The translations under genes were made by a program, and so were the position numbers. The notes beneath the pieces were generated by a model. It saw only the letters and a list, made by a program, of their open reading frames with translations. It did no database searches and was not told where the DNA came from. 64,000 nt of DNA, taken from assembly GCF_000167355.1 (NCBI RefSeq), contig NZ_AAEW02000001.1:248001-312000 (forward strand), given 5' to 3'. Origin of the DNA: Desulfuromonas acetoxidans DSM 684. Its GTDB lineage: Bacteria; Desulfobacterota; Desulfuromonadia; Desulfuromonadales; Desulfuromonadaceae. This document shows, piece after piece, positions 18,121 through 59,989 of this stretch; within the stretch, counting starts at the first letter, position 1; every line of letters starts with the position of its first letter.

Positions 18121-19616
18121 GTATGTCATGGACCCATCACCTTCCCGTTCTTCAGGTGATCCTGCCACTGCTGGGTGCGCCGCTGTGCATGCTGACCCGT
18201 TCCAGCCGTCTCAACTGGCTGATTACCGTGGTCATTTCGTGGTCGGCACTTATCATCAGCATACTATTGGCGCGCCAGGTGTGGGTGCACGGCCCCATCA
18301 CCTACAACATGGGTGGCTGGTGTGCACCCTGGGGTATCACCTACCACATCGATGCGCTTAATGCCTTTGTACTGCTGATTGTCACATCCATCGCGGCTCT
18401 GGTCGCTCCCTATGCGCGTAAAAGCGTGCAAAAGGAGGTCGAAGCACATCGTCAGGCGGTGTTTTATGCCTTGCTGCTGCTGTGCCAGGCCGGGCTGCTC
18501 GGCATTGTCATCACCGGCGACGCCTTTAATATGTATGTATTTCTCGAGCTGTCATCGCTCTCATCCTATGCTCTAATCGGCATCGGCAGGAGGCGGCGCG
18601 GACTGACCGCCGCATTTCAATACCTGATCATGGGCACCATCGGGGCAACTTTTATCCTGATCGGCATCGGCCTCTTGTACAATCTGACCGGCACTTTGAA
18701 CATTCTCGACCTGGCTGAACAGCTCAATCGACACAACCTGATCACCACCGGCAATCGCACTCTGATCACGGCTTTCGCCTTTCTCACCGTCGGTTTGAGT
18801 CTCAAGCTGGCCCTGTTCCCGCTGCACCTGTGGCTGCCGAACGCTTACAGCTATGCACCGTCGGTGGTCACGATTTTCCTGGCGGCCACGGCCACCAAAG
18901 TGGCGGTGTACATGCTGCTGCGTTTCTGCTTCACCATCCTCGGTCACGGTGCACTGTTCCAAATGACATTGGGTAAGATCGTCCTGCTGCCGTCGTTGTG
19001 CGCTATTTTCATCGGCTCCATCGTCGCCATCTTCCAGTACGATATTAAGCGAATGCTGGCCTACTCAAGTATTGCCCAGATCGGCTACATGACCCTCGGT
19101 ATCACCATGGCGACACCATTGGGCCTCACAGCCGGTATTGTCCACCTGTTCAACCACGCCCTGATGAAAGGGCTGCTATTCATGACCATGGGCGCGGTGA
19201 TCTATCGGGTTGATTCTGTCTACCTGAGCGACTTTCGCGGACTGGGAAAACGAATGCCGTGGACCATGGCTGCGTTTGTCGTCGGCGGACTCAGCCTGAT
19301 GGGGGTTCCGCTGACTGCCGGTTTTATCAGCAAATGGTACCTGGTGCAATCCGCGCTGGAGTGCGGCTGGTGGCCGGTAGCAGGACTGATTCTCATCGGC
19401 TCGCTACTGGCCGTGATCTACGTGTGGCGGGTCGTGGAAACCGCCTACTTCAATCCCGACCACGAGCTGGAGCAGCGCAGCCATGAAGCGCCGTTATCAC
19501 TACTGATTCCCATGTGGATTTTGGTACTGGCTAATATCTACTTCGGCATCAACAGTGACCTGCCGCTGAGCATGGCGAGCCGGGCCGCCCATCTTCTCCT
19601 GGGGGTAGCGGTATGA
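18117..19616 (+). CDS. mrpD: Mrp antiporter subunit D (NuoN/M-like)
   Basis: A 499-aa protein of about 14 membrane helices, of the proton-conducting transporter family shared with NuoL/M/N. Seen: FVFLELSSLSSYALIGIGR (functional Glu of helix 5), LALFPLHLWLPNAYSYAPS (helix 7-8 region with conserved His), and DIKRMLAYSSIAQIGYM (broken-helix region). It is the most MrpD-like of the three large subunits of this operon. It overlaps mrpC and the next antiporter gene by 4 nt. Confidence 0.93.
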   Translation: MSMSWTHHLPVLQVILPLLGAPLCMLTRSSRLNWLITVVISWSALIISILLARQVWVHGPITYNMGGWCAPWGITYHIDALNAFVLLIVTSIAALVAPYARKSVQKEVEAHRQAVFYALLLLCQAGLLGIVITGDAFNMYVFLELSSLSSYALIGIGRRRRGLTAAFQYLIMGTIGATFILIGIGLLYNLTGTLNILDLAEQLNRHNLITTGNRTLITAFAFLTVGLSLKLALFPLHLWLPNAYSYAPSVVTIFLAATATKVAVYMLLRFCFTILGHGALFQMTLGKIVLLPSLCAIFIGSIVAIFQYDIKRMLAYSSIAQIGYMTLGITMATPLGLTAGIVHLFNHALMKGLLFMTMGAVIYRVDSVYLSDFRGLGKRMPWTMAAFVVGGLSLMGVPLTAGFISKWYLVQSALECGWWPVAGLILIGSLLAVIYVWRVVETAYFNPDHELEQRSHEAPLSLLIPMWILVLANIYFGINSDLPLSMASRAAHLLLGVAV

Positions 19617-21082
19617 CAATAGCCACCCTGATGCAGTTATGCCTGATCATTCCAGCCGCTGGTGCGCTATTTATTGTCCTCAGCCACCGCCTGCGCGACC
19701 TACGCGAAGGGGTAACTCTGTTCAGTGCCGCGGCCCTGTTCGCTGTGGTTTTTCAGCTGTTCCGTCGTCCTGATGCTCTGGATGCCTCACCCGTCATTCT
19801 GGCCACACCGTTGCCGGGTCTGGAACTGGCTCTGGACCTCGAGCCATTGGGTTTGCTGTTTGCCGGTATCGCCAGCCTGTTGTGGATGATCACATCGCTG
19901 TACACCATCGGCTACATGCGTGGCAACCGCGAACAGCAGCAAACCATTCTTTATGCCTGCTTCGCTCTGGCTCTGGCCAGTACCATGGGCATTGCCCTGG
20001 CTGGCAACCTGCTGACGCTATTTGTGTTTTACGAAATGCTTACCCTTTCGACCTACCCACTGGTCACCCACAAACGTGATCACGATGCCTTGACCGGCGG
20101 CCGTTTTTATCTCGGGATTCTGGTCGGCAGCTCCATTGGCCTGCTGCTCCCCGCCATTATCTGGACCTGGCACCTGACCGGGACGACCGCATTTCAATTT
20201 GGCGGCATTCTGCCAACAGACACCTCGAAAACCGTGGTCACAGCCCTGCTGCTGCTTTACGCCTTCGGCATCGGCAAGGCGGCGCTGATGCCCCTGCATC
20301 GCTGGCTACCCGAAGCCATGGTCGCGCCGACACCGGTCAGCGCCCTGCTGCATGCCGTGGCCGTGGTCAAAGCCGGGGTGTTCTGTATTGTCAAGGTAGT
20401 GCTTTACGTGTTTGGCACCGAAATACTCATCGGCAGCGACGGCCTGTTTATCCTCCAGGTGATTGCGGCGTTTACGTTGCTGTGCGCTTCGCTCATTGCC
20501 TTGCAGCAGGACAACTTGAAACGACGCCTGGCTTATTCCACCATCAGCCAGCTGTCCTACATCACGCTGGCTACGGCGATCCTGGCACCACTGTCCATCA
20601 CCGGAGCGGTGGTCCACATTGCCGCCCATGCCGTCGGGAAGATCACCCTGTTTTTTGCTGCCGGTGCCATCTATACAGCGGCCCATAAAACCCGGGTCAG
20701 TGAACTGAATGGCATCGGTAAACGCATGCCATGGACCATGGGCGCGTTTGCCGTCGCCACATTATCAATGATCGGACTGCCACCGGCCGCAGGATTTCTC
20801 TCCAAGTGGTTTATGTTGCAAGGGGCGTTTCAATCCGGCCAGCTCTGGGTTATTGCCGTGTTGCTCCTCAGCACCTTGCTTAACGCTGGATATTTTATCC
20901 CCATTGTCTATGCCGCTTTTTTCAAACCGGAAGACCATGTCCCTGATCATGCCCACGGTGAAGCCCCGCTGAGCATGGTTGTTGCTTTGTCGGCAACCGC
21001 AGGCCTGACTCTGGTGCTGTTTTTCTGGCCGGATCTGATTGTTACCATCGCCTCACGTCTGGGGCAGGGAGGTGTATTATGA
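19613..21082 (+). CDS. Second antiporter-like subunit (MrpD/NuoL family), cassette gene 1
   Basis: A 489-aa proton-conducting transporter family protein with about 14 helices. Seen: YTIGYMRGNREQQQT, the helix-5 Glu in FYEMLTLSTYPLVTH, ALMPLHRWLPEAMVAPTPVSALLHA and NLKRRLAYSTISQLSY. It is clearly closer to the gene at 58496-59989 in the second nuo cluster (which has FYEIVSIFTYPLVMH and GYMRGLDEHAQT) than to mrpD beside it. It overlaps mrpD and the small gene downstream by 4 nt each. I infer that it forms a pumping channel in the complex. Confidence 0.92.
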   Translation: MTIATLMQLCLIIPAAGALFIVLSHRLRDLREGVTLFSAAALFAVVFQLFRRPDALDASPVILATPLPGLELALDLEPLGLLFAGIASLLWMITSLYTIGYMRGNREQQQTILYACFALALASTMGIALAGNLLTLFVFYEMLTLSTYPLVTHKRDHDALTGGRFYLGILVGSSIGLLLPAIIWTWHLTGTTAFQFGGILPTDTSKTVVTALLLLYAFGIGKAALMPLHRWLPEAMVAPTPVSALLHAVAVVKAGVFCIVKVVLYVFGTEILIGSDGLFILQVIAAFTLLCASLIALQQDNLKRRLAYSTISQLSYITLATAILAPLSITGAVVHIAAHAVGKITLFFAAGAIYTAAHKTRVSELNGIGKRMPWTMGAFAVATLSMIGLPPAAGFLSKWFMLQGAFQSGQLWVIAVLLLSTLLNAGYFIPIVYAAFFKPEDHVPDHAHGEAPLSMVVALSATAGLTLVLFFWPDLIVTIASRLGQGGVL

Positions 21083-21282
21083 AACGGATCATGACGCCTT
21101 TGCTGCTCACCGCTCTCGCCATTGTTGTGGTGATCGACCCGTGGCTCCATCATCATACGCCGTTGTCAACTCAGCCTGTCGGCCTGTTTGTCCTGATCAG
21201 CCTTGGTGGCTGTCTGCTGTGTGTTGCCATTGCTTTGGTTCTGGCTCCACTGCTTTCACGTCGGGAGGATTATTATGACTGA
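21079..21282 (+). CDS. Two-helix small membrane protein, cassette gene 2 (67 aa)
   Basis: No named family. The 67-aa product has two predicted membrane helices (about 5-20 and 33-57) joined by a short loop with HHH, and ends in SRREDYYD. It resembles the 82-aa protein at 58251-58499: both have an Asp after helix 1 (VIDPW and VFDFF), a His-rich loop, VG at the start of helix 2, an L-x-GC inside it, and an R-x2-D-(Y/H)-YD ending. Both lie between two large antiporter-like genes. Overlaps of 4 and 8 nt with its neighbours show it is translated with them. A linker or assembly role is inference. Confidence 0.82.
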   Translation: MKRIMTPLLLTALAIVVVIDPWLHHHTPLSTQPVGLFVLISLGGCLLCVAIALVLAPLLSRREDYYD

Positions 21283-23008
21283 TCTGCTCCTGCCCCCCGG
21301 CGTGTTGCTGCTGTGTGTTGTTCCGGCGCTGGCCTTGTTACCACGAATCCTGTGCCGCTGGATTCTCGCATTAAGTCCACCGCTGGTACTGCTTTATCTG
21401 TGGATGTTGCCCGAAAACGCTGCGTTGTCCGTCCATCTGGCCGGATTTGACCTGCACCTGGTGCAGCTCAGCGCTATGGGCCGCCTGTTTGCCAGTGCGT
21501 TTCTGCTCGCGACCTGGGCTGGGAGTCTGTTTGCATTTCCGGCCCAGCGCCGCGAGTGGTGTGCCGCCTATCTCTACGCCGGCAGTGCGGTGGCCATCAG
21601 CCACTGCGGTGATTGGATCAGTCTGTTTTTGTTCTGGGAAGTGATGGCCGTTGCTTCAACGGTTCTGGTGTGGACGGGTGGGTTCAAACAGAGCGCGGCT
21701 TCCGGTATGCGCTATCTGCTGGTTCATTTGACCGGAGGCGTTCTGCTGATGAGCGGAATTGCAGCCCACCTGCTGGCACAGGACTCTACCCTGATAACAC
21801 CTCTGACCGATGGCACCGTTGGATCGGTGCTGATACTCGCCGGTTTCCTCGTCAATGCCGGAGCCCCGCCACTGTCGTTCTGGGTGGCTGATGCCTATCC
21901 GCAGTCGAGTCCCAGCGCCATGGTGTTTTTGTCGGCACTGACGACCAAGACAGCGGTCTTTGTGCTGGCCAGTTGCTTCGCCGGGTGGTCGATATTAATC
22001 CCCATTGGTGGCTACATGGCTATTTACGGCATCATCTATGCCTTACGTGAAAACGATGTCCGACGTATCCTTGCCTACAGCATCGTCAACCAGGTTGGTT
22101 TTATGGTGGTGGCCATTGGCATTGGCGGCGAAACTGCCATCAACGGTGTCACTCTCCATGCTCTGGCCCACATTTTTTACAAAACAGTTCTGGTTATTGC
22201 GGCGGGTGTCATATTACGGGAGACCGGTGCACGCCATGCCACTCAACTGGGTGGACTGGCGCGCCGCTATCCGCTGGTGACGGCTTGTACCCTGATCGGC
22301 GCTGCCGCAAGCATGGGCGTGCCGCTCACCTCCAGCTTCATCAGCAAGGGGGTGATTCTCCAGGCCGCCGTGGAACACCACGTACTGTGGATATGGGTGC
22401 TATTGCTCGCTTGTTCAGCTGCAGTGGCCTTTAATGCCGGTATCCGTTTCCCCTGGCTGGTTTTTTTCCGTACACAACAGAAGCCTTTGCCGGAAAAACC
22501 GCTACAGCTTTGCCCTTCCTCTTTATCGGCGATTCTGCTGCCAACGCTGCTGTGTCTGGCGATCGGCATGTTCCCCCAAAAGCTTTTCGCCTTGCTGCCG
22601 TTTTCAGCGGTCTATCACCCCTATACCGTTCTCCACATGGCCGAGCAATTTCAGATTCTGGTGCCGGCCATCGCTCTGTTCTGGTGGTTACGACCGTTAA
22701 TGGTTCCACGACCGTTGACCCAGCTCGATCTCGACTGGCTTTTGCGACGCTTGTTGTTTTTTGCCTGGGAGGAGGGCGTTCTGCGGTTGCTCTATCTCAG
22801 TGTTAATGTACGAGATGTGTTGCTGACATCGTCGGTGCGTGGTTTCAAGTTTCTGTTCCGCCACTACGGCCCTCGCGGCATCCTGGCTCGCTCCTGGCCG
22901 ACCGGCAGCATCGCCCTGTGGGTTGCGCTGATTCTCGCCAGCTATGTGGTTCTGTACAGCCTGCAAAGTCGCTCATTGTGGCAATTCATCCACTCAAGCT
23001 TCAGTTGA
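21275..23008 (+). CDS. Third antiporter-like subunit with C-terminal extension, cassette gene 3
   Basis: A 577-aa proton-conducting transporter family protein. Seen: the helix-5 Glu in FWEVMAVASTVLVW, NAGAPPLSFWVADAYPQSS, TTKTAVFVLASCFAG and NDVRRILAYSIVNQVGFM, followed after residue about 430 by a long extension ending in another membrane helix, like the lateral arm of NuoL. Its closest counterpart here is the 588-aa protein of nuo cluster 2. The usual His of the PPxHxWLPDAYP segment is replaced (PPLSFWVADAYP), so this subunit may conduct differently. Start at 21275: GGAGG lies 6 nt upstream. It is the last gene of the Mrp operon. Confidence 0.92.
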   Translation: MTDLLLPPGVLLLCVVPALALLPRILCRWILALSPPLVLLYLWMLPENAALSVHLAGFDLHLVQLSAMGRLFASAFLLATWAGSLFAFPAQRREWCAAYLYAGSAVAISHCGDWISLFLFWEVMAVASTVLVWTGGFKQSAASGMRYLLVHLTGGVLLMSGIAAHLLAQDSTLITPLTDGTVGSVLILAGFLVNAGAPPLSFWVADAYPQSSPSAMVFLSALTTKTAVFVLASCFAGWSILIPIGGYMAIYGIIYALRENDVRRILAYSIVNQVGFMVVAIGIGGETAINGVTLHALAHIFYKTVLVIAAGVILRETGARHATQLGGLARRYPLVTACTLIGAAASMGVPLTSSFISKGVILQAAVEHHVLWIWVLLLACSAAVAFNAGIRFPWLVFFRTQQKPLPEKPLQLCPSSLSAILLPTLLCLAIGMFPQKLFALLPFSAVYHPYTVLHMAEQFQILVPAIALFWWLRPLMVPRPLTQLDLDWLLRRLLFFAWEEGVLRLLYLSVNVRDVLLTSSVRGFKFLFRHYGPRGILARSWPTGSIALWVALILASYVVLYSLQSRSLWQFIHSSFS

Positions 23009-26431: not shown

Positions 26432-27892
26432 TTACAGGATCGCCTGTCGCGCCAACGACATGATACCGCTGGGTACGATTCCCATGTAGAGAACCGCAAT
26501 GACCGACAAGACAATGCAGATGGTCGCCCCGGGCTTAAGCTGAATCCAGGCGAAATCTTCCTCCGGATCCTTGAAGTACATGAATACCATAACCCGCAGG
26601 TAGTAGTATAGGGATACTGCCGAGTTAAGAACACCCAGTACCGCGAGCCAGACATACCCAGCATTCAAAGCACCGGCAAAGATATAGAACTTGCCACTGA
26701 AACCGGCAGACGGCGGAATCCCCATCAAGGAGAACAGACAGATGGATAACAGAACCGCCAGCAACGGACGCTTATAACCAAATCCTGCGACCCCCTGTAG
26801 CGTCAGGTTGTCTTCACCCTGCTTGCCAATCAGAACCAGAACAGCAAAAGCACCGATGTTCATAAACGTATAGGCCAGCATGTAGTAGAGAACACCGGAA
26901 ATTCCGATTTCGTTGGCCGCAACCAGACCAACAAGAGCGTAACCAGCATGCGCAATGGACGAATAGGCCAGCATCCGCTTAAGATTTGTCTGATTGAGGG
27001 CAATGAAGTTACCGAAAATCATAGTCAGAACAGCCAGAACCCACAGCAGCGAAGTCCAGGTGCCCTGCATACCCACCAGACTGACCATGAAGATGCGCAT
27101 AAATGCAGCAAAGGCAGCGGCTTTGGGTCCGGCACTCATAAATGCGGTAATCGGTGTCGGTGCGCCCTGGTAGACATCAGGTGTCCACATGTGGAACGGA
27201 GCAATAGCAATCTTAAACAGGAATCCGGTTGCCATCAGCAGCATGCCGGCAACCGCAACAGGATTGCCCAACGCGGCTGGAAAGGCCTGAAAAAAAGAAC
27301 CGATATCAACCAGATTAGTTGTACCGGCCACGCCATAAATCAGCGCCATACCATAGAGCAGAAAGCCTGTGGAGAACGCGCCAAGAAGGAAATATTTCAG
27401 ACCTGCTTCGTTGGATTGACGTTGATTACGGAAGAATCCGGCCAAAACATACAGTGAGACCGACAGAACCTCAAGACCGAGGAAGATGGTCATTAAGTCG
27501 GTTCCGGAAGCCATCAGCATGGCACCAACAGTACTGAACAGAATCAGAGAATAGTATTCTCCAACAGGATAGCCTTCCCGTTTCAAGTAATTGTCCGACA
27601 TCAGGATTGTCAGAGCTGCCGAGATCAGAAAGACGATTGTGAAGAAGATCGAAAAGTTATCCAGAACAACGTGTCCGGCAAAACCGGCCTGGGCATTGTT
27701 CCAGCTACCAACAGCGACAATCCCGGTCGCCAAAAGAGCCACAAGGCTCATTCCGGCAACATGTGCCGTGGCGCCGCGCTTGGAGAATGCATTCACAAGC
27801 AACATCACCATCGCAAAGCATGCCAGAACAATGGATGGCATGAGTGCGGCAAAGTTGATGTTTTGCATGGCTGTTTGCACCAGATTTTCCAT
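26432..27892 (-). CDS. nuoN: NADH-quinone oxidoreductase subunit N
   Basis: A 486-aa membrane subunit, one of three antiporter-like subunits of complex I, with 14 predicted helices. Seen: the helix-5 Glu in FLGLEVLSVSLYVLAGF, the helix-7/8 segment APFHMWTPDVYQGAP and NLKRMLAYSSIAHAGYA. It couples quinone reduction to proton transfer. AAAGGAG lies 7 nt before the ATG. It is the last gene of the nuoABCDHIJKLMN operon and is followed by a terminator. Confidence 0.96.
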   Translation of the reverse strand: MENLVQTAMQNINFAALMPSIVLACFAMVMLLVNAFSKRGATAHVAGMSLVALLATGIVAVGSWNNAQAGFAGHVVLDNFSIFFTIVFLISAALTILMSDNYLKREGYPVGEYYSLILFSTVGAMLMASGTDLMTIFLGLEVLSVSLYVLAGFFRNQRQSNEAGLKYFLLGAFSTGFLLYGMALIYGVAGTTNLVDIGSFFQAFPAALGNPVAVAGMLLMATGFLFKIAIAPFHMWTPDVYQGAPTPITAFMSAGPKAAAFAAFMRIFMVSLVGMQGTWTSLLWVLAVLTMIFGNFIALNQTNLKRMLAYSSIAHAGYALVGLVAANEIGISGVLYYMLAYTFMNIGAFAVLVLIGKQGEDNLTLQGVAGFGYKRPLLAVLLSICLFSLMGIPPSAGFSGKFYIFAGALNAGYVWLAVLGVLNSAVSLYYYLRVMVFMYFKDPEEDFAWIQLKPGATICIVLSVIAVLYMGIVPSGIMSLARQAIL

Positions 27893-27947
27893 GAAGATGC
27901 TCCTTTAGAAGCGGTTTAACGCAAGTTACTTAAATTCAGCTCAACGC

Positions 27948-29534: not shown

Positions 29535-29577
29535 TAGAAGTTGCTCCTTGTATATGAGATTCCAGTCACAGCCGTCA

Positions 29578-31557: not shown

Positions 31558-31603
31558 CTATATCTCCTCTAGGCGGACTGAACCAGAGACAGCCCTGAAG
31601 AAG

Positions 31604-31906
31604 TTACCATTTCAACAGGCTGAAATCCTCAACGTCAATGGACTCTCTGTTACGGAAAAAGGCGATCATCAGTGCCAGACCGACAGCGGCTTCCGCTGCG
31701 GCAACTGTCATAATGAAAAACACGAAGATCTGACCATCCATATTACCGAGATGACTTGACAGGGCGATGAACGTTAAGTTGACCGCATTCAGCATCAACT
31801 CGACGCACATAAAAACTACGATGGCATTTTTACGGGTCAGGACACCAATCGTTCCCATCGAGAACAAAATAGCGCTCAAAACCATATAATGAGTAATTGT
31901 AATCAT
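31604..31906 (-). CDS. nuoK: NADH-quinone oxidoreductase subunit K
   Basis: A 100-aa three-helix membrane subunit. Seen: [17 protein letters not shown] with the membrane Glu, and [17 protein letters not shown] with the second Glu, both needed for the proton path between NuoN and NuoH. GGGAG lies 7 nt before the ATG. Standard length. Confidence 0.97.
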
Positions 31907-49654: not shown

Positions 49655-49690
49655 GCACAGAACACTGTACTTATAGGATTGGATGAAATT

Positions 49691-50923
49691 ATGGATTTAA
49701 CACTCGTAGTAGCCGGTTGCACAATGTTCACCGGTGTGATCCTGGCTCTTGTTGCTATCATTTTGGTGGCACGCAAGGGTCTGGTTCCCAGCGGCGACAT
49801 TAATTTTTATATTAACGATGATCCCAGCAAGACGATTACCACCAAGCCCGGTGGTAAACTGCTGGGAGCCCTTGCCGACCAAGGTATCTTTATTCCCTCT
49901 GCATGTGGTGGTGGCGGTACCTGTGGTCAGTGCCATGTCAAAGTCTTCGAAGGTGGTGGCGACATCCTGCCGACAGAGACCGGCCATATTAACAAGCGTG
50001 AAGCCCGTGAAGGTTTGCGTTTGGCCTGTCAGGTAAACGTTAAGCAAGACATGAAACTGGGTATTCCCCGCGAAATTTTTGACATCAAGAAATGGGAATG
50101 CACCGTACGTTCCAACGAAGGTCGCGCAACCTTTATTAAAGAATTTGTTGTTGAACTGCCCGAAGGCGAGGATTGCGATTTCCGCGCTGGTGGTTACATC
50201 CAGATTGAAGCACCTCCCCATGAGCTGTCTTATTCCGATTTCGATATTGAAGAAGAATACCGTGCGGACTGGGATCAATTTGATCTGTGGCGTTATAAAT
50301 CGGTCGTTAAAGAGCCGATCATGCGTGCTTACTCCATGGCCAACTACCCTCTGGAGAAAGGCATCATCATGCTCAATGTCCGGGTTTGCCCGCCACCGCC
50401 AAGTGCTCCCGACGCACCTCCGGGACAGATGTCCTCTTATATTTTCAATCTTAAGCCCGGTGACAAGGTCACTATCTCCGGTCCTTACGGTGAGTTCTTC
50501 GCCCGTGAAACGGACAACGAGATGGTCTTCATCGGTGGTGGTGCCGGTATGGCTCCGATGCGTTCTCACATCCTTGACCAACTGCTGCGTCTCAACACAG
50601 ACCGTAAGATGACCTACTTCTACGGTGCACGTAGCTTGAAAGAGATGTTCTACGTCGAAGAGCTTAATGGCCTGCAAGAGAAGTACCCCAACTTCTCATG
50701 GCATTGCGCATTATCTGATCCGATGCCGGAAGACAACTGGGAAGGGCCGGTCGGATTTATCCACAATGTCATGTACGACCTGTACATCAAAGACCACGAG
50801 GCCCCGGAAGACTGCGAATACTACATGTGCGGTCCTCCGATGATGGCCAACGCCGTCACCAACATGCTCATGGAGCAAGGTGTCGAGCGTGAAAACATCA
50901 TGTTTGACGACTTCGGTGGTTAA
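49691..50923 (+). CDS. nqrF: Na+-translocating NADH-quinone reductase subunit F
   Basis: A 410-aa electron-input subunit. Seen: an N-terminal membrane helix (about 5-27), a [2Fe-2S] ferredoxin domain ([16 protein letters not shown] and a later ACQVNV), an FAD domain with RAYSMANYP, and an NADH-binding domain with [12 protein letters not shown] and YMCGPPMM. It oxidises NADH and passes electrons to the FMN of NqrC and NqrB. I start at the ATG at 49691; an in-frame TTG 12 nt earlier is less likely. A strong terminator follows. Confidence 0.97.
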
Positions 50924-51543: not shown

Positions 51544-52578
51544 ATGCTTCGACGCATTATTATCCTCGTAACACTGGTTCTTATCGGTACCGTCGTGTAT
51601 CTTAACCACGCGCCAAAAGGCCAAATCGGCCCCCTGTTGCTTAGTGGTTCAACTATGGGAACAACGTATCACTTAAAGGTTTTTGTTCCACCAGAGTCTA
51701 AATTAAACACTGACGAGATCTCTAAACAGGTCAGCGCATCTCTTGATAAGATCGATCGGCTGATGTCAACATACAAAGAGGATTCTGAGGTCTCCCGATT
51801 TAACGCGCTGCCGAGTAATCAGTGGTTACCCATCTCCGAACCCACCTATCACGTCATTAATGCGGCAGTGCGCTACAGCGCTATGAGTGATGGTGCATTT
51901 GATATTACAGTTGGAAAACTTGTCAATTTATGGGGCTTTGGACCAACCATTAATGTCAATGCAATCCCGGATGCAAAAAACATCGACCGACTTCGCAACA
52001 AAATCGGCTACACCAAATTACAGATGCGTCCTGATCCGATGGAAATTTTGAAAGAATCTGACGCAATCTATATTGATCTTTCCGCAATTGCCAAAGGCTA
52101 TGCAGTTGATGCGGTGGCTGCCGTTCTTGAACAAAATGCCCTGCATAACTACATGGTCGAAATCGGCGGGGAGATCAGAACATCAGGACACAAACAAACA
52201 GGACAGCCATGGTCTATAGGTATTGAAAGCCCGGTCACCGATCAGCGCTCTGTACAAAAAGTGCTCCATTTGCAACAATCTGCCATGGCAACTTCCGGCG
52301 ACTATCGCAACTATTTTGAACACAATGGACAGCGTTTCTCCCATACCATTGATCCACGCACCGGTTATCCGATCACACATAAACTGGCCTCAGTCACCGT
52401 TCTTGCGGAAACCTGCATGGACGCTGATGCTTTAGCCACATTGTTGACCGTTTTAGGTCCTGAGTCGGGTATGGAATTTGCTGAGAAAAACAACTTAGCT
52501 GTTTTTATGATTATTAAAACCAACGATGGATTTACAGAAAAATCCAGTACGTCCTTCACCCCATTCCTCAAACAGTAA
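51544..52578 (+). CDS. apbE: FAD:protein FMN transferase
   Basis: A 344-aa ApbE-family enzyme that attaches FMN from FAD to Thr in NqrB and NqrC. Seen: an uncleaved-looking N-terminal helix (about 4-21, no lipobox Cys), GSTMGTTYHLKVF, IDRLMSTYKEDSEVSRFN, DLSAIAKGYAVDAVA (metal-binding) and SHTIDPRTGYPI. It would act in the periplasm, anchored to the membrane. GGAG lies 8 nt before the ATG. It is followed by nqrM after 13 nt. Confidence 0.96.
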   Translation: MLRRIIILVTLVLIGTVVYLNHAPKGQIGPLLLSGSTMGTTYHLKVFVPPESKLNTDEISKQVSASLDKIDRLMSTYKEDSEVSRFNALPSNQWLPISEPTYHVINAAVRYSAMSDGAFDITVGKLVNLWGFGPTINVNAIPDAKNIDRLRNKIGYTKLQMRPDPMEILKESDAIYIDLSAIAKGYAVDAVAAVLEQNALHNYMVEIGGEIRTSGHKQTGQPWSIGIESPVTDQRSVQKVLHLQQSAMATSGDYRNYFEHNGQRFSHTIDPRTGYPITHKLASVTVLAETCMDADALATLLTVLGPESGMEFAEKNNLAVFMIIKTNDGFTEKSSTSFTPFLKQ

Positions 52579-53412: not shown

Positions 53413-54831
53413 TTACATCAATGTTTCAACGGCATGCTTTGCTGTCGCCAAAAGGCTCTGAGGCATGGCACCGATGATAATAATGGCCAGAATAAAGAAT
53501 GTTCCGAGCAATTTAGCCGTGAACGGCAATGCAATCACCTCCTGATCGGAGTCAGGAGCACAATAGGCTGCTCGGGCCATCTTGAGATAGTAAAATGCAG
53601 CCACAGCCGCATTGATAACGGCAAGAATAACCAGTGCATAAAAACCCTTATGAATTGCCCCGGTAAACAGCATAAACTTACCAATAAAACCGATTGTCGG
53701 CGGAATACCGGCCATACCAAAGGCAGAGACCAACAAAGTCAACGCCAACAAGGGTGAACGGCGAGACAGTCCTTTCAAGTCATCAAAAGAGACGTTCTCA
53801 CCATCCGGAGCTACGTTGTAAATGACGTAGAAACAACCCAGATTCATCAGCAGGTAGCCAATGACATAGAACACGGCCGCAGACATACCCATCTCATCAG
53901 CGGTCAGGATACCAATCATGACATAACCGGCGTGGGCAATACTGGAATACGCCAGCAGACGCTTAAGATCCGTCTGTACCAAGGCAGTCAAGTTACCAAG
54001 GGTCATAGACAGAACCGCGATAACAGCAAGAACCCAGGTTAACTGGCTGACATCATAACCAGCGACAGCAACAAAACGGATCAGCAACAGAACGGCACCA
54101 ACTTTCGGCAGCGTTGCAACAAAGCTGGTTGTTTCGTTGGATGCACCCTGATAAACATCAGGAGTCCAGAAATGCATCGGAAACAGTGCCAGTTTGTAGA
54201 AAAACGCCGTCATGACAAGAATCATGGCGATAACAGCCAAAGGTTGAGTTGCAACCAGTGACGGCATCAACTGAGCCAGTTCATTGAGGTAGGTGGTATG
54301 GGCCAGGCCGAAAATATAGCTCATGCCATACAGGGTCAGTCCAGTTGAAGCAGCACCAAACAGAACATACTTGATACCGGCTTCCACGTGGATACGCCCC
54401 TGGCCATTGCGAAACGGAATCACCACATACAGTGCGTAAGATGAAATCTCGAGGCTAAGCAGAATCGTCAATAACTCCACTGAACTGCTCAGGAACATCA
54501 GCCCCAGAGCACTGATAGCCAGAAACATGTTGTATTCACAGTGGAGCTTACCTTCGATCCCGGTTAAACCACGACCAAGCAAGAACACCAGAAACAGGCC
54601 CCCGACAATCACCATCTTAAACAACTGAGAAAGCGAATCGACCAGATAAGCATCAAAGAAAAGACTGTCTTGTGCGTTCATGGACATAAACGTGGCCACA
54701 AGCGTCACGGCAGTCAATAACAGGCTGGCACCTTGAATGGTACCAGTGCGAAACTTGCCCAAGGTCATGAAGAACAAGACCAGGACCGTTAACATCAGTG
54801 CCAACTCGGGCAGAAAAGCTGTGTTTAACAT
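53413..54831 (-). CDS. nuoN: NADH-quinone oxidoreductase subunit N, second copy
   Basis: A 472-aa antiporter-like membrane subunit. Seen: LSLEISSYALYVVIPFRNG with the functional Glu, LFPMHFWTPDVYQGA and DLKRLLAYSSIAHAGYVM. It is clearly different from the first NuoN, so the duplication is old. I start at 54831 (MLNTAFLPELAL); a longer in-frame reading to 54945 would lie inside nuoM-2. Last gene of the second nuo operon. Confidence 0.95.
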   Translation of the reverse strand: MLNTAFLPELALMLTVLVLFFMTLGKFRTGTIQGASLLLTAVTLVATFMSMNAQDSLFFDAYLVDSLSQLFKMVIVGGLFLVFLLGRGLTGIEGKLHCEYNMFLAISALGLMFLSSSVELLTILLSLEISSYALYVVIPFRNGQGRIHVEAGIKYVLFGAASTGLTLYGMSYIFGLAHTTYLNELAQLMPSLVATQPLAVIAMILVMTAFFYKLALFPMHFWTPDVYQGASNETTSFVATLPKVGAVLLLIRFVAVAGYDVSQLTWVLAVIAVLSMTLGNLTALVQTDLKRLLAYSSIAHAGYVMIGILTADEMGMSAAVFYVIGYLLMNLGCFYVIYNVAPDGENVSFDDLKGLSRRSPLLALTLLVSAFGMAGIPPTIGFIGKFMLFTGAIHKGFYALVILAVINAAVAAFYYLKMARAAYCAPDSDQEVIALPFTAKLLGTFFILAIIIIGAMPQSLLATAKHAVETLM

Positions 54832-54850
54832 AATTGATCCGATTCTTGAG

Positions 54851-56443
54851 TTAGAAGAGGTTCTTGACCCAGGCACCTGCTTGATTAAGCAGGGCGTGGT
54901 GTTCACCATGGTGAACAGCTTCCTGTACCGCGCTACCGGCATCAACCTGATGGATCAGGTGAGCCACACTGGTATCCATCATGTCAAGCAACGGCGTCGG
55001 ATGTAAACCGATCCAGAATACGAATACGGTCAAGAATGCCAGTTGAATAAATTCTCTAAAGTTACAATCGGTCAGATGGTGTTCATCGCCATGATCATCA
55101 CCGTGGTGGCCATGACCATCTGAATCGTCCCAAACCATTTTTTGCAACAGACGCAGCATATAGGCTGCTGCGAGAATCGCACCAGGAATTGCCAAAGCGC
55201 CAACCAGAGGATATTTATCAAACGCTCCGAACAGAACCAGGAATTCGCCGACAAAACTATTGGTACCTGGGAAGGCCAGCGAAGACAGGGAGAAGATGCC
55301 GAGGAAAGTGACATAAATCGGCATGAACATCCCCAGCTTACTGTTATCGGAAATCTCACGGCTATGTGTACGCTCATAGATCAGACCGATCAGGATAAAC
55401 AGAGCACCTGTCGTGACACCGTGGTTGATCATCTGCAGCATGGCACCTTTGATACCGGCATCATTCAGCAGGAAAATACCCAGTGTGACAAAACCCATGT
55501 GGCCAACAGAGGAGTAAGCAATCAACTTCTTAATATCCGATTGACCAAGAGCCAGATAGCCACCAACGATGATACTGACCAACGACATGATGATCAGGTA
55601 CGGCATGCAGTAGACCGTTGCGGCAGGTGCCATGGGCAGGCAGAAACGCAGGAAACCGTAACCACCCATTTTCAGCAGGATACTGGCCAGAATAACTGAA
55701 CCGGCGACCGGGGCCTGAACGTGAGCAGCAGGCAGCCAGGTATGGAACGGGAACATCGGCATTTTGATGGCGAAGCCGAGAGCACACGCCAGGAAGATCC
55801 ACATCTGATAGGAGAACGCAAAGTTATGATCCATCAACTCAGGGATAAAGAAGGTCCCTGTGGTGATGTACATCGCAACAATGGAAACCAGCAGGAAGAT
55901 ACTACCGGCAAAGGTGTAAAGGAAGAACTTGATCGAAGCATAATCCTTCCTGTCACCACCCCAGATTGCGATGATGAGATACATCGGCACCAGCATCCCT
56001 TCCCAGAAGATATAGAAGAGAACCGTGTTCAGGCTGACAAAAACGCCGAGCATCGCTGTTTCCATCAACAAGGTCACAATGATGAATTCCTTCATCCGTG
56101 TCTTGATATAGGTCCAAGAGCACAGGATACACAGCGGCATGACCAGCGTCGTCAACAGAACCAGCAGGACACTGATTCCATCCACACCAACCACATAATC
56201 GAGGTTGAGTGCCGGGAACCAATGGCGCAGTTCGACGAACTGATATTTCGCCGTGGTCTGATCAAATCGAGACCACAACGGCAATGAGATAACAGCAGTC
56301 ACCAGAGTCACTGCCAGACCCCAGAATTTCAATAGTGTGTCACCACGCAAAAACATGGCCACAACAGCCCCGACTACCGGTATCAGCAGCAGCATCGATA
56401 AGATCGGGAAATTTAATGTATTCAGGATTAGATACTTTTCCAT
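54851..56443 (-). CDS. nuoM: NADH-quinone oxidoreductase subunit M, second copy
   Basis: A 530-aa antiporter-like subunit. Seen: LFYIFWEGMLVPMYLIIAIWGG (functional Glu region), FPFHTWLPAAHVQAPVAGS and DIKKLIAYSSVGHMGFVTLG. A cytoplasmic loop near 439-456 is strikingly rich in His and Asp (SDGHGHHGDDHGDEHH), and a second His cluster (VHHGEHH) lies near the C-terminus; metal or proton buffering is possible. It precedes nuoN-2 by 19 nt. Confidence 0.95.
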   Translation of the reverse strand: MEKYLILNTLNFPILSMLLLIPVVGAVVAMFLRGDTLLKFWGLAVTLVTAVISLPLWSRFDQTTAKYQFVELRHWFPALNLDYVVGVDGISVLLVLLTTLVMPLCILCSWTYIKTRMKEFIIVTLLMETAMLGVFVSLNTVLFYIFWEGMLVPMYLIIAIWGGDRKDYASIKFFLYTFAGSIFLLVSIVAMYITTGTFFIPELMDHNFAFSYQMWIFLACALGFAIKMPMFPFHTWLPAAHVQAPVAGSVILASILLKMGGYGFLRFCLPMAPAATVYCMPYLIIMSLVSIIVGGYLALGQSDIKKLIAYSSVGHMGFVTLGIFLLNDAGIKGAMLQMINHGVTTGALFILIGLIYERTHSREISDNSKLGMFMPIYVTFLGIFSLSSLAFPGTNSFVGEFLVLFGAFDKYPLVGALAIPGAILAAAYMLRLLQKMVWDDSDGHGHHGDDHGDEHHLTDCNFREFIQLAFLTVFVFWIGLHPTPLLDMMDTSVAHLIHQVDAGSAVQEAVHHGEHHALLNQAGAWVKNLF

Positions 56444-56494
56444 GACTTCCTACTGTCTATGAGTAATTGCCTATCCACTTACACGCAGGCTGTG

Positions 56495-58261
56495 TCAGAT
56501 CAGAACCACGACAATCAGTACCAGGAAGAGCAGTACAACAGCCCCGCCAATGTATTGTTGCAATTTACCGGTCTGGAACTGACGAACCTGCTCGCCTCCC
56601 TTGACGACTCCGCGCGCACTGCCATCCAGTGCCCAGTCAATGCCTTCCCAATCAAACCAGGAAAGAGCGCGAGCCATCGCCATGGTAAAACGCAATCCGA
56701 CAGTCTGGTAAACATTACTAACCCACTCATTGGTTGCACTGATGGGCTTGCGGGCGACCCACATGAACCAACCGGCACCGCGACGGTAAAACCAGTCGAG
56801 ATCGAGGTTGGACACATCGTGGGGTTTGAGGTACTTCACCATGAGATAGAAACCCAAGCCGGTGAAACCGAGCAGATGAAACGTCTCTGTCAGGTGATAG
56901 CTGTTGTACGGATGGTAATTAACCGCGTACGGCAGCATGTCGTACAGGTAATCCGGGTAAACACCAAGGAAGATGCACATAAAGGCTGCCATAAACATAC
57001 CGACTTGCATATTCCAGTAAGCTTCTTTCGGTTTGAGGCCGCAATCGTTAGGTCCAAACCAGATGAAGTAAGGCAGCTTGATGCCGACCGAAAGGAACGT
57101 ACCAACGGCCGCCAGAGAAAGCATCAGCATCAGGATCAACTGATGGTTGGCACCTGCCGCAGCAATGATCATCGACTTACTGATAAATCCACTAGTGAGC
57201 GGGAAGCCAGAGATGGCGATACCGCCTATGACCGTAAAAATCATCGACAAGGGCATGTATTTGTAAAGGCCACCAAGCTCACTAAGCTTAGAACGACCCG
57301 TCATCTCCAGGACACTACCAACACCCATGAACAACAGGGCTTTATAGAGGATGTGAGCATAGGCATGAGCACAGGCACCGTTAATTGCCATCTCGGTGCC
57401 GATCCCAACACCACATACCATGTAACCGACCTGACTGACAATGTGATAGGCCAGAATCCGGCGGGCGTCATTTTCGATAACCGCGTAGCCAACCCCATAC
57501 AGGGTCATGATGGCACCCATGATCGCCAGTGTTTCAAAACCGGCAAACCCACGTGCCAGAACATAAACGGCTGTTTTGGTGGTAAACGCACACATGAAAA
57601 CCGCGCCCGTTACCGTTGCTTCCGGATAAGCATCCGGCAGCCAGGCATGGATGGGCGGTACAGCGGCGTTAAGCATGAAACCGATCATGATCAGATAATC
57701 TGCCAGGGTTGCGGTATCCGGTGAAATCGGAACAAAAGTCAGATCACCGAGGTTCTGGTAGCGCAAGAATATCCCGCCGAGCAAAACCAGGCCGCCGAAG
57801 GTGTGCACAAGCAGATAGCGATAACCGGCTTCAATGGACCGCTTACGTTTGCGGTACCACACCAGGAAAACGGAGGCAAAGGCCATCAGTTCCCAGAAGA
57901 TGAAGACCACCAGATAATCACCTGCCAGGGTGGTACCCAATGAACCGGCAACATAAAGCCATGCTGCAGCGTGTTGGCCACTCTCCTTGACATGCAGACC
58001 GAAGATGCTGCCAATCAGCGCCATCAACGTGAAAACATGCAAAAAAACCATGGTCAACTCATCAACACGACCAAACTGCAGCTTAAAACCAAGCCATTCA
58101 ACGCAACCAAAGGATGCCGGCAGATACTTAATCTGAATAAAGGCCAGCAGCGGTACAACGACCAGCCAGATCTTCTGGGCGTTGAATTTTTTGAATAAGG
58201 GAAGCAGCAGCGCACCGACAATAAACATGGTGGCTGGGTGCATAAAAATACTACTTGTCAT
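56495..58261 (-). CDS. NuoL/MrpD-like subunit with lateral-arm extension, cassette gene 3
   Basis: A 588-aa proton-conducting transporter family protein that takes the NuoL place in this operon. Seen: FWELMAFASVFLVWYRK (functional Glu), NAAVPPIHAWLPDAYPEAT, TTKTAVYVLARGFAG and NDARRILAYHIVSQVGYM, then a long C-terminal part with amphipathic helices and a final membrane helix (QYIGGAVVLLFLVL), like the lateral arm of NuoL. Its sequence style is MrpD, and its nearest relative in the window is the 577-aa Mrp gene at 21275. I start at 58261, overlapping the small gene by 11 nt. Confidence 0.9.
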   Translation of the reverse strand: MTSSIFMHPATMFIVGALLLPLFKKFNAQKIWLVVVPLLAFIQIKYLPASFGCVEWLGFKLQFGRVDELTMVFLHVFTLMALIGSIFGLHVKESGQHAAAWLYVAGSLGTTLAGDYLVVFIFWELMAFASVFLVWYRKRKRSIEAGYRYLLVHTFGGLVLLGGIFLRYQNLGDLTFVPISPDTATLADYLIMIGFMLNAAVPPIHAWLPDAYPEATVTGAVFMCAFTTKTAVYVLARGFAGFETLAIMGAIMTLYGVGYAVIENDARRILAYHIVSQVGYMVCGVGIGTEMAINGACAHAYAHILYKALLFMGVGSVLEMTGRSKLSELGGLYKYMPLSMIFTVIGGIAISGFPLTSGFISKSMIIAAAGANHQLILMLMLSLAAVGTFLSVGIKLPYFIWFGPNDCGLKPKEAYWNMQVGMFMAAFMCIFLGVYPDYLYDMLPYAVNYHPYNSYHLTETFHLLGFTGLGFYLMVKYLKPHDVSNLDLDWFYRRGAGWFMWVARKPISATNEWVSNVYQTVGLRFTMAMARALSWFDWEGIDWALDGSARGVVKGGEQVRQFQTGKLQQYIGGAVVLLFLVLIVVVLI

Positions 58262-58499
58262 AATGATCCGTGCCCCTCTCCAGCCATACGTGTGACAGCC
58301 CTTTACAGAATACAATCAATGCCAAACACCCGATCAGGCCGAACACAGCCCAGAAACCGACGATGTGGTCACCCCAGAAGTGCGCGTGGTGACGATCAGC
58401 AAAGAAATCGAATACGAGAGCGAACGCCAAAAACGACATAAACAGCCATTTCAACATGCTCGGTCTCTCACGCAGATAAGTAAGAAATTTCACAATCAT
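58251..58499 (-). CDS. Two-helix small membrane protein, cassette gene 2 (82 aa)
   Basis: No named family. The 82-aa product has a basic start (IVKFLTYLRERPS), one membrane helix (about 17-32), an Asp and a His-rich loop (DFFADRHHAHFWGDH), a second helix with VG and L-x-GC (about 46-65), and an R-x2-D-HYD ending. It resembles the 67-aa Mrp protein at 21079-21282 in order, motifs and gene position. It overlaps both neighbours, so it is co-translated with two antiporter-like subunits. I infer a structural or assembly part of the complex. Confidence 0.82.
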   Translation of the reverse strand: MIVKFLTYLRERPSMLKWLFMSFLAFALVFDFFADRHHAHFWGDHIVGFWAVFGLIGCLALIVFCKGLSHVWLERGTDHYDK

Positions 58500-59989
58500 G
58501 ACTTCACCATCAGGTTAATGAGGTCGAGAAACAGATCAGGATAAATACCGATCAAAACAGAGATCGTTCCGGTGATCACCAGGGGAACCACCATGAACAG
58601 AATCAGAGGTTTCTTTTCAAGGCTACCGGTCAGCCCTTCATCAGCGGGCAACGGCTTGCCGAAGAACGCCTGAAGAAAGACCGGAACAAAATAACCGGCA
58701 TTGAGCAAACTACTGGCAAGAAGGACACACAACAGAATCCAGTTGTGAATATCCATCGTACCCAGAGCCAGGTACCATTTCGTGACAAAACCACCAACCG
58801 GAGGCGCACCGATCATACCCAGAGAAGCGACACCAAACGCCATCATGGTAAATGGCATCCGCTTGCCCAGACCGCCCATCTCGGTAATATCTTTTTTACC
58901 GCTGGCAACAAAGATACAACCTGCCGCGAAGAACAGTGTGATCTTAGCAAAGGCGTGGTTGGCGATATGGATCAAACCACCAGTGATCGAGTTCGGCGTC
59001 AGCATGGCGACACCGAGAATGATGTACGACAACTGACTGACCGTTGAGTACGCCAAACGCGCTTTGAGGTTGGTCTTAGTAAGTGCGATGACCGAGGCGG
59101 TCAAGATGGTAAATGAAACAAAGTAGGCGGTAAAAATACCCAGCCCTGTTTCATGAAGGATGTTGGTACCGAAAATCGACAGCATGACACGACAGGTCGA
59201 GAACACACCAACCTTAACAACAACAACCGCATGAAGCAATGCACTAACCGGTGTCGGTGCCACCATTGCGTCAGGCAACCAGTTGTGCAGCGGCATGATA
59301 CCGGACTTGGCAAAACCAAACAGACACAGCAGGTAAGCGATTCCAACCACAAAGCGATCTGCCTCCGCCGGGAAAATACCCTGTGCAACATTGGCGGTAT
59401 TAAAGTCAAGCGTTCCACACAGAACGTAGATAATGACCATGGCCGGGAGTAAAAAGGCCTTGGAAGTGAACATCAAGTAGACGATGTACTTCTTGGCACC
59501 GGCATAGCCCTCTTCATCCTGATGGTGCATAACCAGCGGGTAGGTGAAGATGGAGACGATCTCGTAAAACAGATATAAGGTAAACAGGTTGCCGGCGAAT
59601 GCCGCACCCATGGCTGCACCAACCGAAACGGCATAGCAGACATAGAATCGGGTCTGAGCATGCTCATCCAGCCCGCGCATATAACCGACACAGTAAAGAC
59701 TGGCCAGAATCCACAGGAATGAGGCGACCAAAGCAAAGACAACACCCAGCGCATCCAGATTCAATTTAACAGAGATGCCAGGATACAACTCAAACAGCGT
59801 ATATTGGAGTTGTTGTCCGTCCAGAATGATCGGCAGAAAGTTCAGGACCGAAACGAAAGTGATAATGGCGCCGAGCGTCGACCAACTGTCGCGCAGATTC
59901 GGCTTTTTGCCCGAAAACATGACGAGCAATCCCGTAATCATCGGGATCAGCGTTGTCAGAATAATCTTGCTGGTGATAATCGTGTTCAT
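58496..59989 (-). CDS. Extra MrpD-like antiporter subunit, cassette gene 1
   Basis: A 497-aa proton-conducting transporter family protein with about 14 helices. Seen: YCVGYMRGLDEHAQT, FYEIVSIFTYPLVMH (functional Glu), GIMPLHNWLPDAMVAPTPVSALLHA and NLKARLAYSTVSQLSY. It matches the 489-aa Mrp gene at 19613 rather than NuoL, NuoM or NuoN. A normal complex I has three such subunits; with this one the second operon has four. The start has no strong ribosome-binding site. Confidence 0.9.
   Translation of the reverse strand: MNTIITSKIILTTLIPMITGLLVMFSGKKPNLRDSWSTLGAIITFVSVLNFLPIILDGQQLQYTLFELYPGISVKLNLDALGVVFALVASFLWILASLYCVGYMRGLDEHAQTRFYVCYAVSVGAAMGAAFAGNLFTLYLFYEIVSIFTYPLVMHHQDEEGYAGAKKYIVYLMFTSKAFLLPAMVIIYVLCGTLDFNTANVAQGIFPAEADRFVVGIAYLLCLFGFAKSGIMPLHNWLPDAMVAPTPVSALLHAVVVVKVGVFSTCRVMLSIFGTNILHETGLGIFTAYFVSFTILTASVIALTKTNLKARLAYSTVSQLSYIILGVAMLTPNSITGGLIHIANHAFAKITLFFAAGCIFVASGKKDITEMGGLGKRMPFTMMAFGVASLGMIGAPPVGGFVTKWYLALGTMDIHNWILLCVLLASSLLNAGYFVPVFLQAFFGKPLPADEGLTGSLEKKPLILFMVVPLVITGTISVLIGIYPDLFLDLINLMVKS

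What the first reader, a model, noticed from the sequence alone, without database searches (positions are those of the whole stretch)
19613..59989. A three-gene antiporter cassette shared by the Mrp operon and the second complex I operon
In the Mrp operon the genes 19613 (489 aa), 21079 (67 aa) and 21275 (577 aa) follow each other. In the second nuo operon 58496 (497 aa), 58251 (82 aa) and 56495 (588 aa) have the same order. Pairs share private motifs: FYE-x5-TYPLV-x-H with GYMRG in the first; FWE-x-MA-x-AS in the third; and in the small protein a post-helix Asp, His-rich loop, VG, L-x-GC and R-x2-D-x-YD end. The small proteins overlap both neighbours. Seen: order and motifs. Known: Mrp and complex I antiporter subunits are homologous. 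Inferred: the cassette moved or duplicated as a unit, and the small protein holds two adjacent antiporter subunits together.
Basis: partly seen in the sequence, partly recalled or inferred. Interest (0 to 1): 0.8.

Follow-up and report, generated by a model that had tools for sequence, protein, structure and literature searches.

The report
Shared antiporter cassette with unnamed subunit
Two energy-converting membrane machines of this bacterium share a three-gene module, and the tiny unnamed protein in its middle turns out to be the regular companion of one of the two ion-channel subunits in many kinds of bacteria.

Summary
X1 (489/497 aa), S (67/82 aa) and X3 (577/588 aa) lie in the same order in the Mrp operon and the second nuo operon, and each pair is homologous (45%, 28%, 36% identity). 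In the nuo operon the cassette stands where NuoL is expected, giving four antiporter-like subunits: the published 'green complex I', in which two MrpD-like subunits replace NuoL.

New here: S is a two-helix membrane protein with no Pfam or NCBIfam family and no solved relative found. In 148 genomes of the phylum, 78 of 79 S genes lie directly before X3 and 78 of 79 X3 genes directly after S; both exceptions are at contig ends. S tracks X3, not X1 (partial correlations 0.68 and 0.01). In two groups S and the X3 core appear to have changed operon type without X1, while X3 kept an Mrp-type tail. So 'moved as a unit' and 'S ties the two antiporters together' are only partly right. The conserved C-terminal motif of S also carries X3's ribosome-binding site and start codon. 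X3's lateral helix in complex I is 25 residues longer than that of ordinary NuoL, as expected for one more antiporter. How S works is inferred.

The parts
19613..21082 (+). X1 of the Mrp operon, MrpD-like antiporter subunit, 489 aa
   Evidence: best NCBIfam NF006236 at 561.7 bits, below its cut-off of 663; 45% identical to the nuo copy
21079..21282 (+). S of the Mrp operon, 67 aa, two-helix membrane protein
   Evidence: no NCBIfam family, Pfam only at E 0.12 or worse; 28% identical to the nuo copy, E 1e-6
21263..21277 (+). GGGAGGA ribosome-binding site and ATG of X3, lying inside the S tail codons
   Evidence: sequence read; family-wide codon bias
21275..23008 (+). X3 of the Mrp operon, NuoL/MrpA-like antiporter subunit with C-terminal tail and final helix, 577 aa; tail about as long as in ordinary NuoL
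   Evidence: best NCBIfam NF009310 at 509.4 bits, below its cut-off of 564; tail measure 69
15628..19616 (+). Rest of the Mrp operon: MrpE, F, G, MbhD/E-like, MrpB, MrpC, MrpD
   Evidence: ORFs; families of 16786-17346, 17117-17764 and 18117-19616; E, F, G and C named by eye
58496..59989 (-). X1 of the second nuo operon, MrpD-like, 497 aa
   Evidence: NF006236 at 751.9 bits, over its cut-off of 663
58251..58499 (-). S of the second nuo operon, 82 aa; predicted helices 2-11, 13-33, 42-45 and 49-73
56495..58261 (-). X3 of the second nuo operon, 588 aa; predicted lateral helix 489-560 and final helix 567-587; tail 25 residues longer than in ordinary NuoL
   Evidence: NF009310 at 738.3 bits, over its cut-off of 564
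53413..56443 (-). NuoN and NuoM of the second nuo operon, downstream of the cassette
   Evidence: ORFs; NuoM family; tree position of both
60075..63987 (-). NuoK, J, I, H, D, C of the second nuo operon, upstream of the cassette; nuoA and nuoB lie further upstream in genus mates
   Evidence: ORFs, named by eye; genus mates L059-L061 show A-B-C-D-H-I-J-K-X1-S-X3-M-N by similarity to the window's genes

Best explanation
The second nuo operon encodes a 'green'-type complex I with four antiporter-like subunits: N, M, X1 and X3, with X1-S-X3 in the place of NuoL. The Mrp operon encodes a cation/proton antiporter with three: D, X1 and X3. Shown: gene order, homology, the one-to-one S-X3 pairing, the S-X3 co-evolution, and the extra 25 residues in X3's tail. 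Inferred: X3 is the outermost subunit, as NuoL and MrpA are, with X1 between it and M (complex I) or D (Mrp). Its lateral helix runs back over the inner subunits and is tuned to the host complex. S is a structural subunit dedicated to X3: a two-helix hairpin with both ends inside, translated just before X3 by overlap coupling, packing on X3's core and stabilising it, probably on the face towards X1. Redox energy (complex I) or the ion gradient (Mrp) then drives ion movement through all antiporter subunits, complex I moving about one more ion per turnover than the canonical enzyme.
For: X1 and X3 clades 100*. Of 80 named loci from many phyla the S profile is found in 79; the 80th, L117, is cut at X3. 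122 of 122 S profile hits in the fetched loci lie just before X3 (121 of these ORFs were the profile's seeds, chosen by similarity to the window's S and not by place). In 148 whole genomes 78 adjacent S-X3 pairs of 79 S (E <= 1e-3) and 79 X3 (E <= 1e-100), the two exceptions at contig ends. Mirror trees on 116 cassettes: partial S-X3 given X1 0.68 [0.56, 0.77], S-X1 given X3 0.01 [-0.12, 0.14]; same direction in nuo-only (n 81: 0.39 and 0.09) and mrp-only (n 29, MrpD included: 0.74 and 0.13) sets. S-X3 repeated without a second X1 in L139 and L195; S-X3 without X1 in L141. Tail measure 49 in 27 of 30 distinct NuoL against 74 in 51 of 81 nuo-context X3 (misses in the full report); [quoted passage not shown] E124, K229, K307 and K362, which I take (recalled) for the antiporter charges, are invariant in 47 X3 rows.
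Against: No structure or biochemistry of S was available, and no complex prediction could be run. Co-evolution may partly reflect genetic linkage, since S carries X3's ribosome-binding site. S-X1 contact is not excluded. The second X3-like gene of L141 has no S of its own. The helix ruler has exceptions: L131 and L148 measure 100 with one NuoM gene seen in the locus, one nuo-context X3 gave only 65 and 18 of 81 could not be measured, and most Mrp-context X3 outside this family and L159/L160 have a different, longer tail. In one subset S also correlates with NuoH (partial 0.24, n 56).
Confidence: 0.7

Rival explanations
1. S is an assembly factor or membrane chaperone for X3: co-translated and needed for its insertion, but absent from the mature complex.
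For: One-to-one pairing with X3, translational coupling and no counterpart found in solved structures by sequence or fold fit equally well.
Against: Conserved residues within or next to the membrane helices (D31 49 of 57 plus 4 Glu, G54 55 of 57, C58 50 of 57, K66 53 of 57) suit a permanent interface; assembly factors are usually less strictly tied to one operon position (recalled).
Confidence: 0.2
2. S bridges X1 and X3 symmetrically, as the first reader proposed (not exclusive of the best explanation).
For: S lies between the two genes in nearly all loci seen and in the window and the two annotated rhizobial plasmids overlaps both.
Against: S tracks X3, not X1; S-X3 was exchanged and repeated without X1; S is present without X1 in L141.
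Confidence: 0.15
3. The S reading frame is conserved mainly as a leader that couples X1 and X3 translation; the peptide has little function of its own.
For: The S tail carries the ribosome-binding site and start codon of X3: GAG 92 of 107 Glu codons at positions -6/-5 against 53% background, tail Tyr codon TAT 98 of 120 against 50%.
Against: Conservation extends over the whole protein with a defined two-helix fold, pLDDT 86, and an S tree that mirrors X3.
Confidence: 0.04

Closest known systems
Green complex I of rhizobia (Degli Esposti and Martinez Romero 2016, not read; described in PMC9040806, passages)
   Same: Two MrpD-like subunits replace NuoL. On S. meliloti pSymA and an Ensifer adhaerens plasmid, which I take for this type, the order is J-K-X1-S-X3-M-N with S annotated 'hypothetical protein'.
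   Different: Those clusters also list nuoE and nuoF (nuoG too in Ensifer); in the window's genome one search for NuoF gave only a partial match below cut-off. The passages of PMC9040806 that I saw do not mention S.
Complex_I_3 of Ca. Manganitrophaceae (PMC9040806, passages)
   Same: Two MrpD-like subunits in place of NuoL; extended lateral helix in the second.
   Different: Five pumps with a second NuoM and a further 26-residue insert; the window has four.
2M complex I of Nitrospira (Chadwick et al. 2018, not held; described in PMC9040806 and PMC7784846, passages)
   Same: A fourth antiporter-like subunit and an insertion in the lateral helix.
   Different: The extra subunit there is a NuoM copy; here NuoL is replaced by X1 and X3.
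Mrp clusters with extra antiporter genes (cyanobacterial and group 3 clusters, PMC5703873, passages; Ca. Nitrospira alkalitolerans, PMC7784846, passages)
   Same: Additional MrpA/MrpD-like genes in the cluster, in Ca. N. alkalitolerans directly after mrpD.
   Different: The passages seen do not mention a small gene between them or a cassette shared with complex I.
MBS of Pyrococcus, subunit MbsH' (PDB 6u8y; PMC7684303, passages; that chain X is MbsH' is my reading)
   Same: Chain 6u8y_X is the best solved sequence relative of X3 (E 1e-59); MbsH' has a lateral helix and final helix holding two antiporter-like subunits together.
   Different: Two antiporter-like subunits; no MBS chain was among the four weak hits of the S profile.

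Membership tests
Green complex I (two MrpD-like subunits replace NuoL) | nuo genes A-D and H-K, M, N in one cluster | tested here: met
   C, D, H-K, M, N in the window (mostly named by eye); A and B in genus mates L059-L061
Green complex I (two MrpD-like subunits replace NuoL) | no NuoL in the cluster; two MrpD-like genes between K and M | tested here: met
   no gene labelled NuoL between K and M in the nuo-context loci
Green complex I (two MrpD-like subunits replace NuoL) | the two subunits are orthologous to the rhizobial ones | tested here: met
   Ensifer L081 X1 and X3 fall inside the same 100* clades; same overlap pattern and middle gene in L079 and L080
Green complex I (two MrpD-like subunits replace NuoL) | assembled, redox-active complex | not testable with these tools
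   no biochemistry possible
Mrp antiporter (CPA3) | MrpB, C, D, E, F, G genes in one operon | tested here: met
   B and D by family models, the rest named by eye and found again in order in relatives
Mrp antiporter (CPA3) | MrpA as one large gene with NuoL-like and C-terminal domains | tested here: not met
   the MbhD/E-like part is a separate 186-aa gene and the NuoL-like part is taken to be X3; irregular clusters are known in other groups (PMC5703873, passages)
2M complex I | duplicated NuoM | tested here: not met
   one NuoM in the second operon
NCBIfam NF009310 and NF006236 equivalogs | score over the curated cut-off | tested here: inconclusive
   nuo-context P0006 and P0004 over, Mrp-context P0003 and P0001 under

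The most novel reading that the evidence does not exclude
S is a previously unnamed subunit shared by one type of respiratory complex I and by Mrp antiporters, and it takes part in ion transfer: its near-invariant membrane-edge Asp31 and Lys66 complete or gate the ion path of the outermost antiporter X3. S plus the X3 core would be a portable end-of-arm pump module that evolution swaps between complex I and Mrp, while the lateral-helix tail of X3 stays matched to the host complex.
Probability: 0.15. Interest if true: 0.85.

Novelty: new variant of a known kind. Interest (0 to 1): 0.6.

Why it matters
Complex I and Mrp antiporters have been studied for decades, yet a widespread variant appears to carry an extra small membrane subunit that is annotated 'hypothetical protein' in the two plasmid records looked at. 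Because it pairs one-to-one with a single antiporter subunit and occurs on a Sinorhizobium megaplasmid, the role of an accessory subunit at the end of the pumping arm, and the rule that the lateral helix grows by about 25 residues per added pump, can be tested directly. It also suggests that parts of a pump, not only whole operons, are exchanged between redox-driven and gradient-driven machines.

Tried and rejected
Tried without result: S against the PDB by profile (4 hits, E 0.09-0.22, taken as chance) and by fold (2 hits, E 5.3 and 9.2); S against Pfam and NCBIfam, 57 members one by one (7 Pfam families and 1 NCBIfam family, each in 1 or 2 members, best E 0.0024); tblastn of the window's S against plasmids (no match even at E 10, although L079 and L080 carry S, so this search is too weak). 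Suspected X1-S fusions from long open frames (G331, G297) were frames open by chance, X1 and S being in different frames. A recent duplication as the origin of the two window copies was rejected by the tree. I first supposed the tail of X3 in complex I to be of ordinary length, which would put X1 outermost; measuring NuoL gave 49 against 74, so this was dropped. For L159/L160 I suspected long-branch error; an AU test rejected joining their X3 core to the window-type Mrp X3 (p 0.0027, but the group was named after seeing a tree and long branches are involved). L065, scored as lacking S, has a diverged S by eye.

Left out of counts: L139, L141 and L152 from the mirror trees, and 3 further sets without a full X1 or X3 (L106, L121 and L143 by the lengths), leaving 116 with the window's two; rows without the anchor motifs in the tail counts (3 of 31 NuoL rows, 18 of 81 nuo-context, 21 of 31 mrp-context and 3 of 12 undetermined X3 rows). 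PHROGs and PADLOC were not searched.
Full report
What is there. The window holds an Mrp operon (15628-23008, plus strand), an ordinary nuo operon (26432-36605, minus; genes named by eye, its L, M and N placed by the tree) and a second nuo operon (53413-63987, minus, at the window's edge). All ten Proton_antipo_M matches in the 3.82 Mb genome lie in the window. In the Mrp operon the genes X1, S and X3 follow mrpD; in the second nuo operon the same three stand between nuoK and nuoM, where nuoL is expected. Identities are 45% (X1), 36% (X3) and 28% (S, E 1e-6 pairwise). NCBIfam places X1 nearest NF006236 and X3 nearest NF009310; the nuo copies pass the curated cut-offs and the Mrp copies do not. 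S has no NCBIfam match and only chance-level Pfam matches; 57 family members scanned one by one gave only scattered weak hits.

The cassette elsewhere. In the window's class NF009310 is over its cut-off in 99 of 277 genomes, and in an even draw of the phylum in 173 of 395. I fetched 40 class loci picked from those hits: S was found by profile in 39, and the fortieth (L065) has a diverged one by eye. S was found in 79 of the 80; L117 begins at X3. Of the 79, 64 lie in nuo clusters, 5 in mrp clusters and 10 could not be told, 7 of these with nuoM downstream. No gene labelled NuoL lies between K and M in those nuo clusters. The S profile gave 122 hits in all loci L039-L160, 122 just before X3 and none elsewhere. 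The profile's 121 seeds came from the same loci, chosen by similarity to the window's S and not by place, so this count is not independent of the loci.

Genome-wide test. The loci above were found through X3, so I searched whole genomes with S itself. In 148 genomes drawn from the phylum (minimum completeness 90) S has 79 matches (E <= 1e-3) in 72 genomes, and X3 has 79 matches (NF009310, E <= 1e-100) in 71. 78 are adjacent pairs. The lone S (G424) is followed by the first 55 residues of X3 at the contig end, and the lone X3 (G439) starts at base 3 of its contig. The window's own S are rows of the profile, so its own hits count for nothing. More distant X3 below the E limit were not looked at.

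S belongs to X3. Mirror trees (FastTree) over 116 cassettes give Spearman S-X3 0.82, S-X1 0.64 and X1-X3 0.77. Partial correlations are 0.68 [0.56, 0.77] for S-X3 given X1 and 0.01 [-0.12, 0.14] for S-X1 given X3, with X3 ahead in 300 of 300 bootstraps. Within nuo loci only (n 81): X3 0.39, X1 0.09, X3 ahead in 196 of 200. With NuoM added (n 72): X3 0.48, X1 0.10, M -0.12. With NuoM and NuoH (n 56): X3 0.41, X1 0.05, H 0.24, M -0.24. Within mrp loci (n 29, MrpD included): X3 0.74, X1 0.13, D -0.09. Gene order agrees: S-X3 is repeated without X1 in L139 (second X3 cut by the contig end) and L195, and L141 has mrpD-S-X3-X3' with no X1 found; the second X3' there has no S of its own. Linkage through the shared ribosome-binding site may contribute to the signal.

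History. In a 108-row tree (quick method, SH-aLRT only) X1 (36 rows) and X3 (39 rows) are each one clade at 100*, apart from NuoM, NuoN, MrpD and NuoL (the program warns of long branches at the deepest joins). The window's two copies are true pairs from old lineages, not a recent duplication. L058 (mrp context) has X1 and X3 inside nuo clades (97*, 100*), which fits transfer of the whole cassette. In L041 and L046 (mrp context) X1 sits in a 100* set of mrp sequences while X3 is nested among nuo sequences (L057 joins them); the S of L041 and L046 is nearest, after L057 and each other, to nuo-type S of L134 and L142. X1 of L159 (mrp context) groups with the window's Mrp X1 (99*), its X3 core with nuo-type L107 (99*, L160 with it), and its S, after L160, with L107. 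Forcing the X3 cores of L159/L160 together with the window type is rejected (p-AU 0.0027, with the caveats printed there). The C-terminal tails of these X3 nevertheless have forms seen in Mrp: L041, L046 and L057 the 'PGxxxQ ... YPVG' form of other Mrp X3, L159/L160 the 'HGP[RQ]GILAR ... PTGS' form of the window's Mrp X3. This suggests that S and the X3 core were exchanged while the tail stayed with the host complex. The mosaic is read from motifs and was not tested formally.

The S tail is double-coding. S stop and X3 start overlap by 8 nt in 78 and by 11 nt in 36 of 124 cases. A Shine-Dalgarno-like tetramer precedes the X3 start in 106 of 122. Glu codons at positions -6/-5 of S are GAG in 92 of 107 against 53% in X1/X3. 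The tail Tyr, which matches the only invariant column of the 57-row alignment, is TAT in 98 of 120 readable cases (124 examined) against 50% background, and in 96 of 124 its last two bases open an ATG. Sequences are related, so these are not independent counts. Conservation that stands on its own: D31 (49 of 57, plus 4 Glu), P47 (41) and G48 (46), G54 (55), C58 (50), K66 (53) and the His-rich loop.

Structure. AlphaFold2 on S (57 rows): pLDDT 86.4, pTM 0.57, helices 2-11, 13-33, 42-45 and 49-73, a membrane hairpin. By charge I place both ends inside (inference). No solved relative by profile or fold. AlphaFold2 on X3 (47 rows): pLDDT 86.2, a long C-terminal helix 489-560 (pLDDT about 55-77) and a final helix 567-587; the best Foldseek matches are MrpA, NdhF and NuoL chains.

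Helix ruler. From the D-[EW]-x-Y anchor to the T-G anchor before the last helix, NuoL measures 49 in 28 of 31 rows: the 30 best TIGR01974 matches of 38 class genomes plus the window's, which is one of those 30, so 27 of 30 distinct. Seven rows give a second reading of 41 and 3 lack the motif. Except for the window and its genus mates I did not look at the operons of these NuoL. Nuo-context X3 measures 74 in 51 of 81 (6 with a second reading), 73 in 4, 75-76 in 5, 100 in 2 (L131, L148), 65 alone in 1, and 18 could not be measured. A hydropathy measure agrees: window NuoL 66 (my arithmetic), X3 of nuo 92, X3 of Mrp 69. [quoted passage not shown] The four-pump X3 being one such step longer than NuoL supports X3 as the outermost of four. 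Against a strict ruler: L131 measures 100 with one NuoM and one NuoN seen in the locus, L148 with one NuoM before the locus ends, PMC9040806 itself reports inserts in enzymes without extra pumps, and most Mrp-context X3 outside this family and L159/L160 carry a different tail of about 90-100 by hydropathy (113 in L139).

How it most likely works. Complex I with N-M-X1-X3 and Mrp with D-X1-X3, S bound to X3, as set out in the best explanation. Shown: membership, order, pairing, co-evolution, helix length. Inferred: position of S, permanence of S in the complex, and ion stoichiometry.

What is known. Green complex I and Complex_I_3 are in print (PMC9040806, passages; the original 2016 paper was not opened, and Chadwick 2018 is not held). 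Ca. Nitrospira alkalitolerans has two NuoM/NuoL-like genes after mrpD (PMC7784846, passages). Ten paper searches were made (listings, with passages of seven papers opened). Only asked for a small membrane or hypothetical protein beside these genes; it listed one paper, not opened. The words 'hypothetical' and 'uncharacterized' do not occur in the main text of PMC9040806. Nothing I saw names S; that is a statement about this library and these searches only. In S. meliloti pSymA and an Ensifer adhaerens plasmid the S gene is annotated 'hypothetical protein'.

Verdict. The finding is real. Its frame (green complex I) is known. The small protein as a strict partner of X3, and the apparent exchange of S with the X3 core between two kinds of machine, look new and are testable.

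Noticed in passing
window 26432-36605 and 53413-63987: Neither nuo cluster has nuoE/F/G between D and H, and one genome search for NuoF gave only a partial match below cut-off (E 5e-17, contig C2), so the electron donor is unclear. NuoE and NuoG were not searched, and flanking unlabelled genes were not identified.
   Followed up: partly
L131, L148: Nitrospirota X3 with a tail another 26 residues longer although the fetched locus shows one NuoM (and one NuoN in L131), an exception to the helix ruler.
   Followed up: partly
L041, L046, L057, L159, L160: X3 looks mosaic: core grouping with complex I sequences, C-terminal tail of a form seen in Mrp.
   Followed up: partly
L111, L197: Rearranged nuo clusters: K-M-X1-S-X3-N in L111 and J-K-M-N-X1-S-X3 in L197.
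   Followed up: no
L139, L195, L141: Mrp operons with X1-S-X3-S-X3' (L139, L195) or mrpD-S-X3-X3' with no X1 found (L141).
   Followed up: partly
L152: Scalindua locus with what looks like a frame-broken S remnant directly before the intact S-X3 pair.
   Followed up: no
L072 (10697-18833): In an order mate the Mrp operon is followed by a radical-SAM gene and hrcA-grpE-dnaK-dnaJ; genes of similar size follow X3 in several other order mates (by eye).
   Followed up: partly
window 49679-50923 and 51544-52578: By eye these look like NqrF and ApbE (Na+-translocating NADH:quinone reductase), beside two complex I operons and Mrp; not tested with a family search.
   Followed up: no
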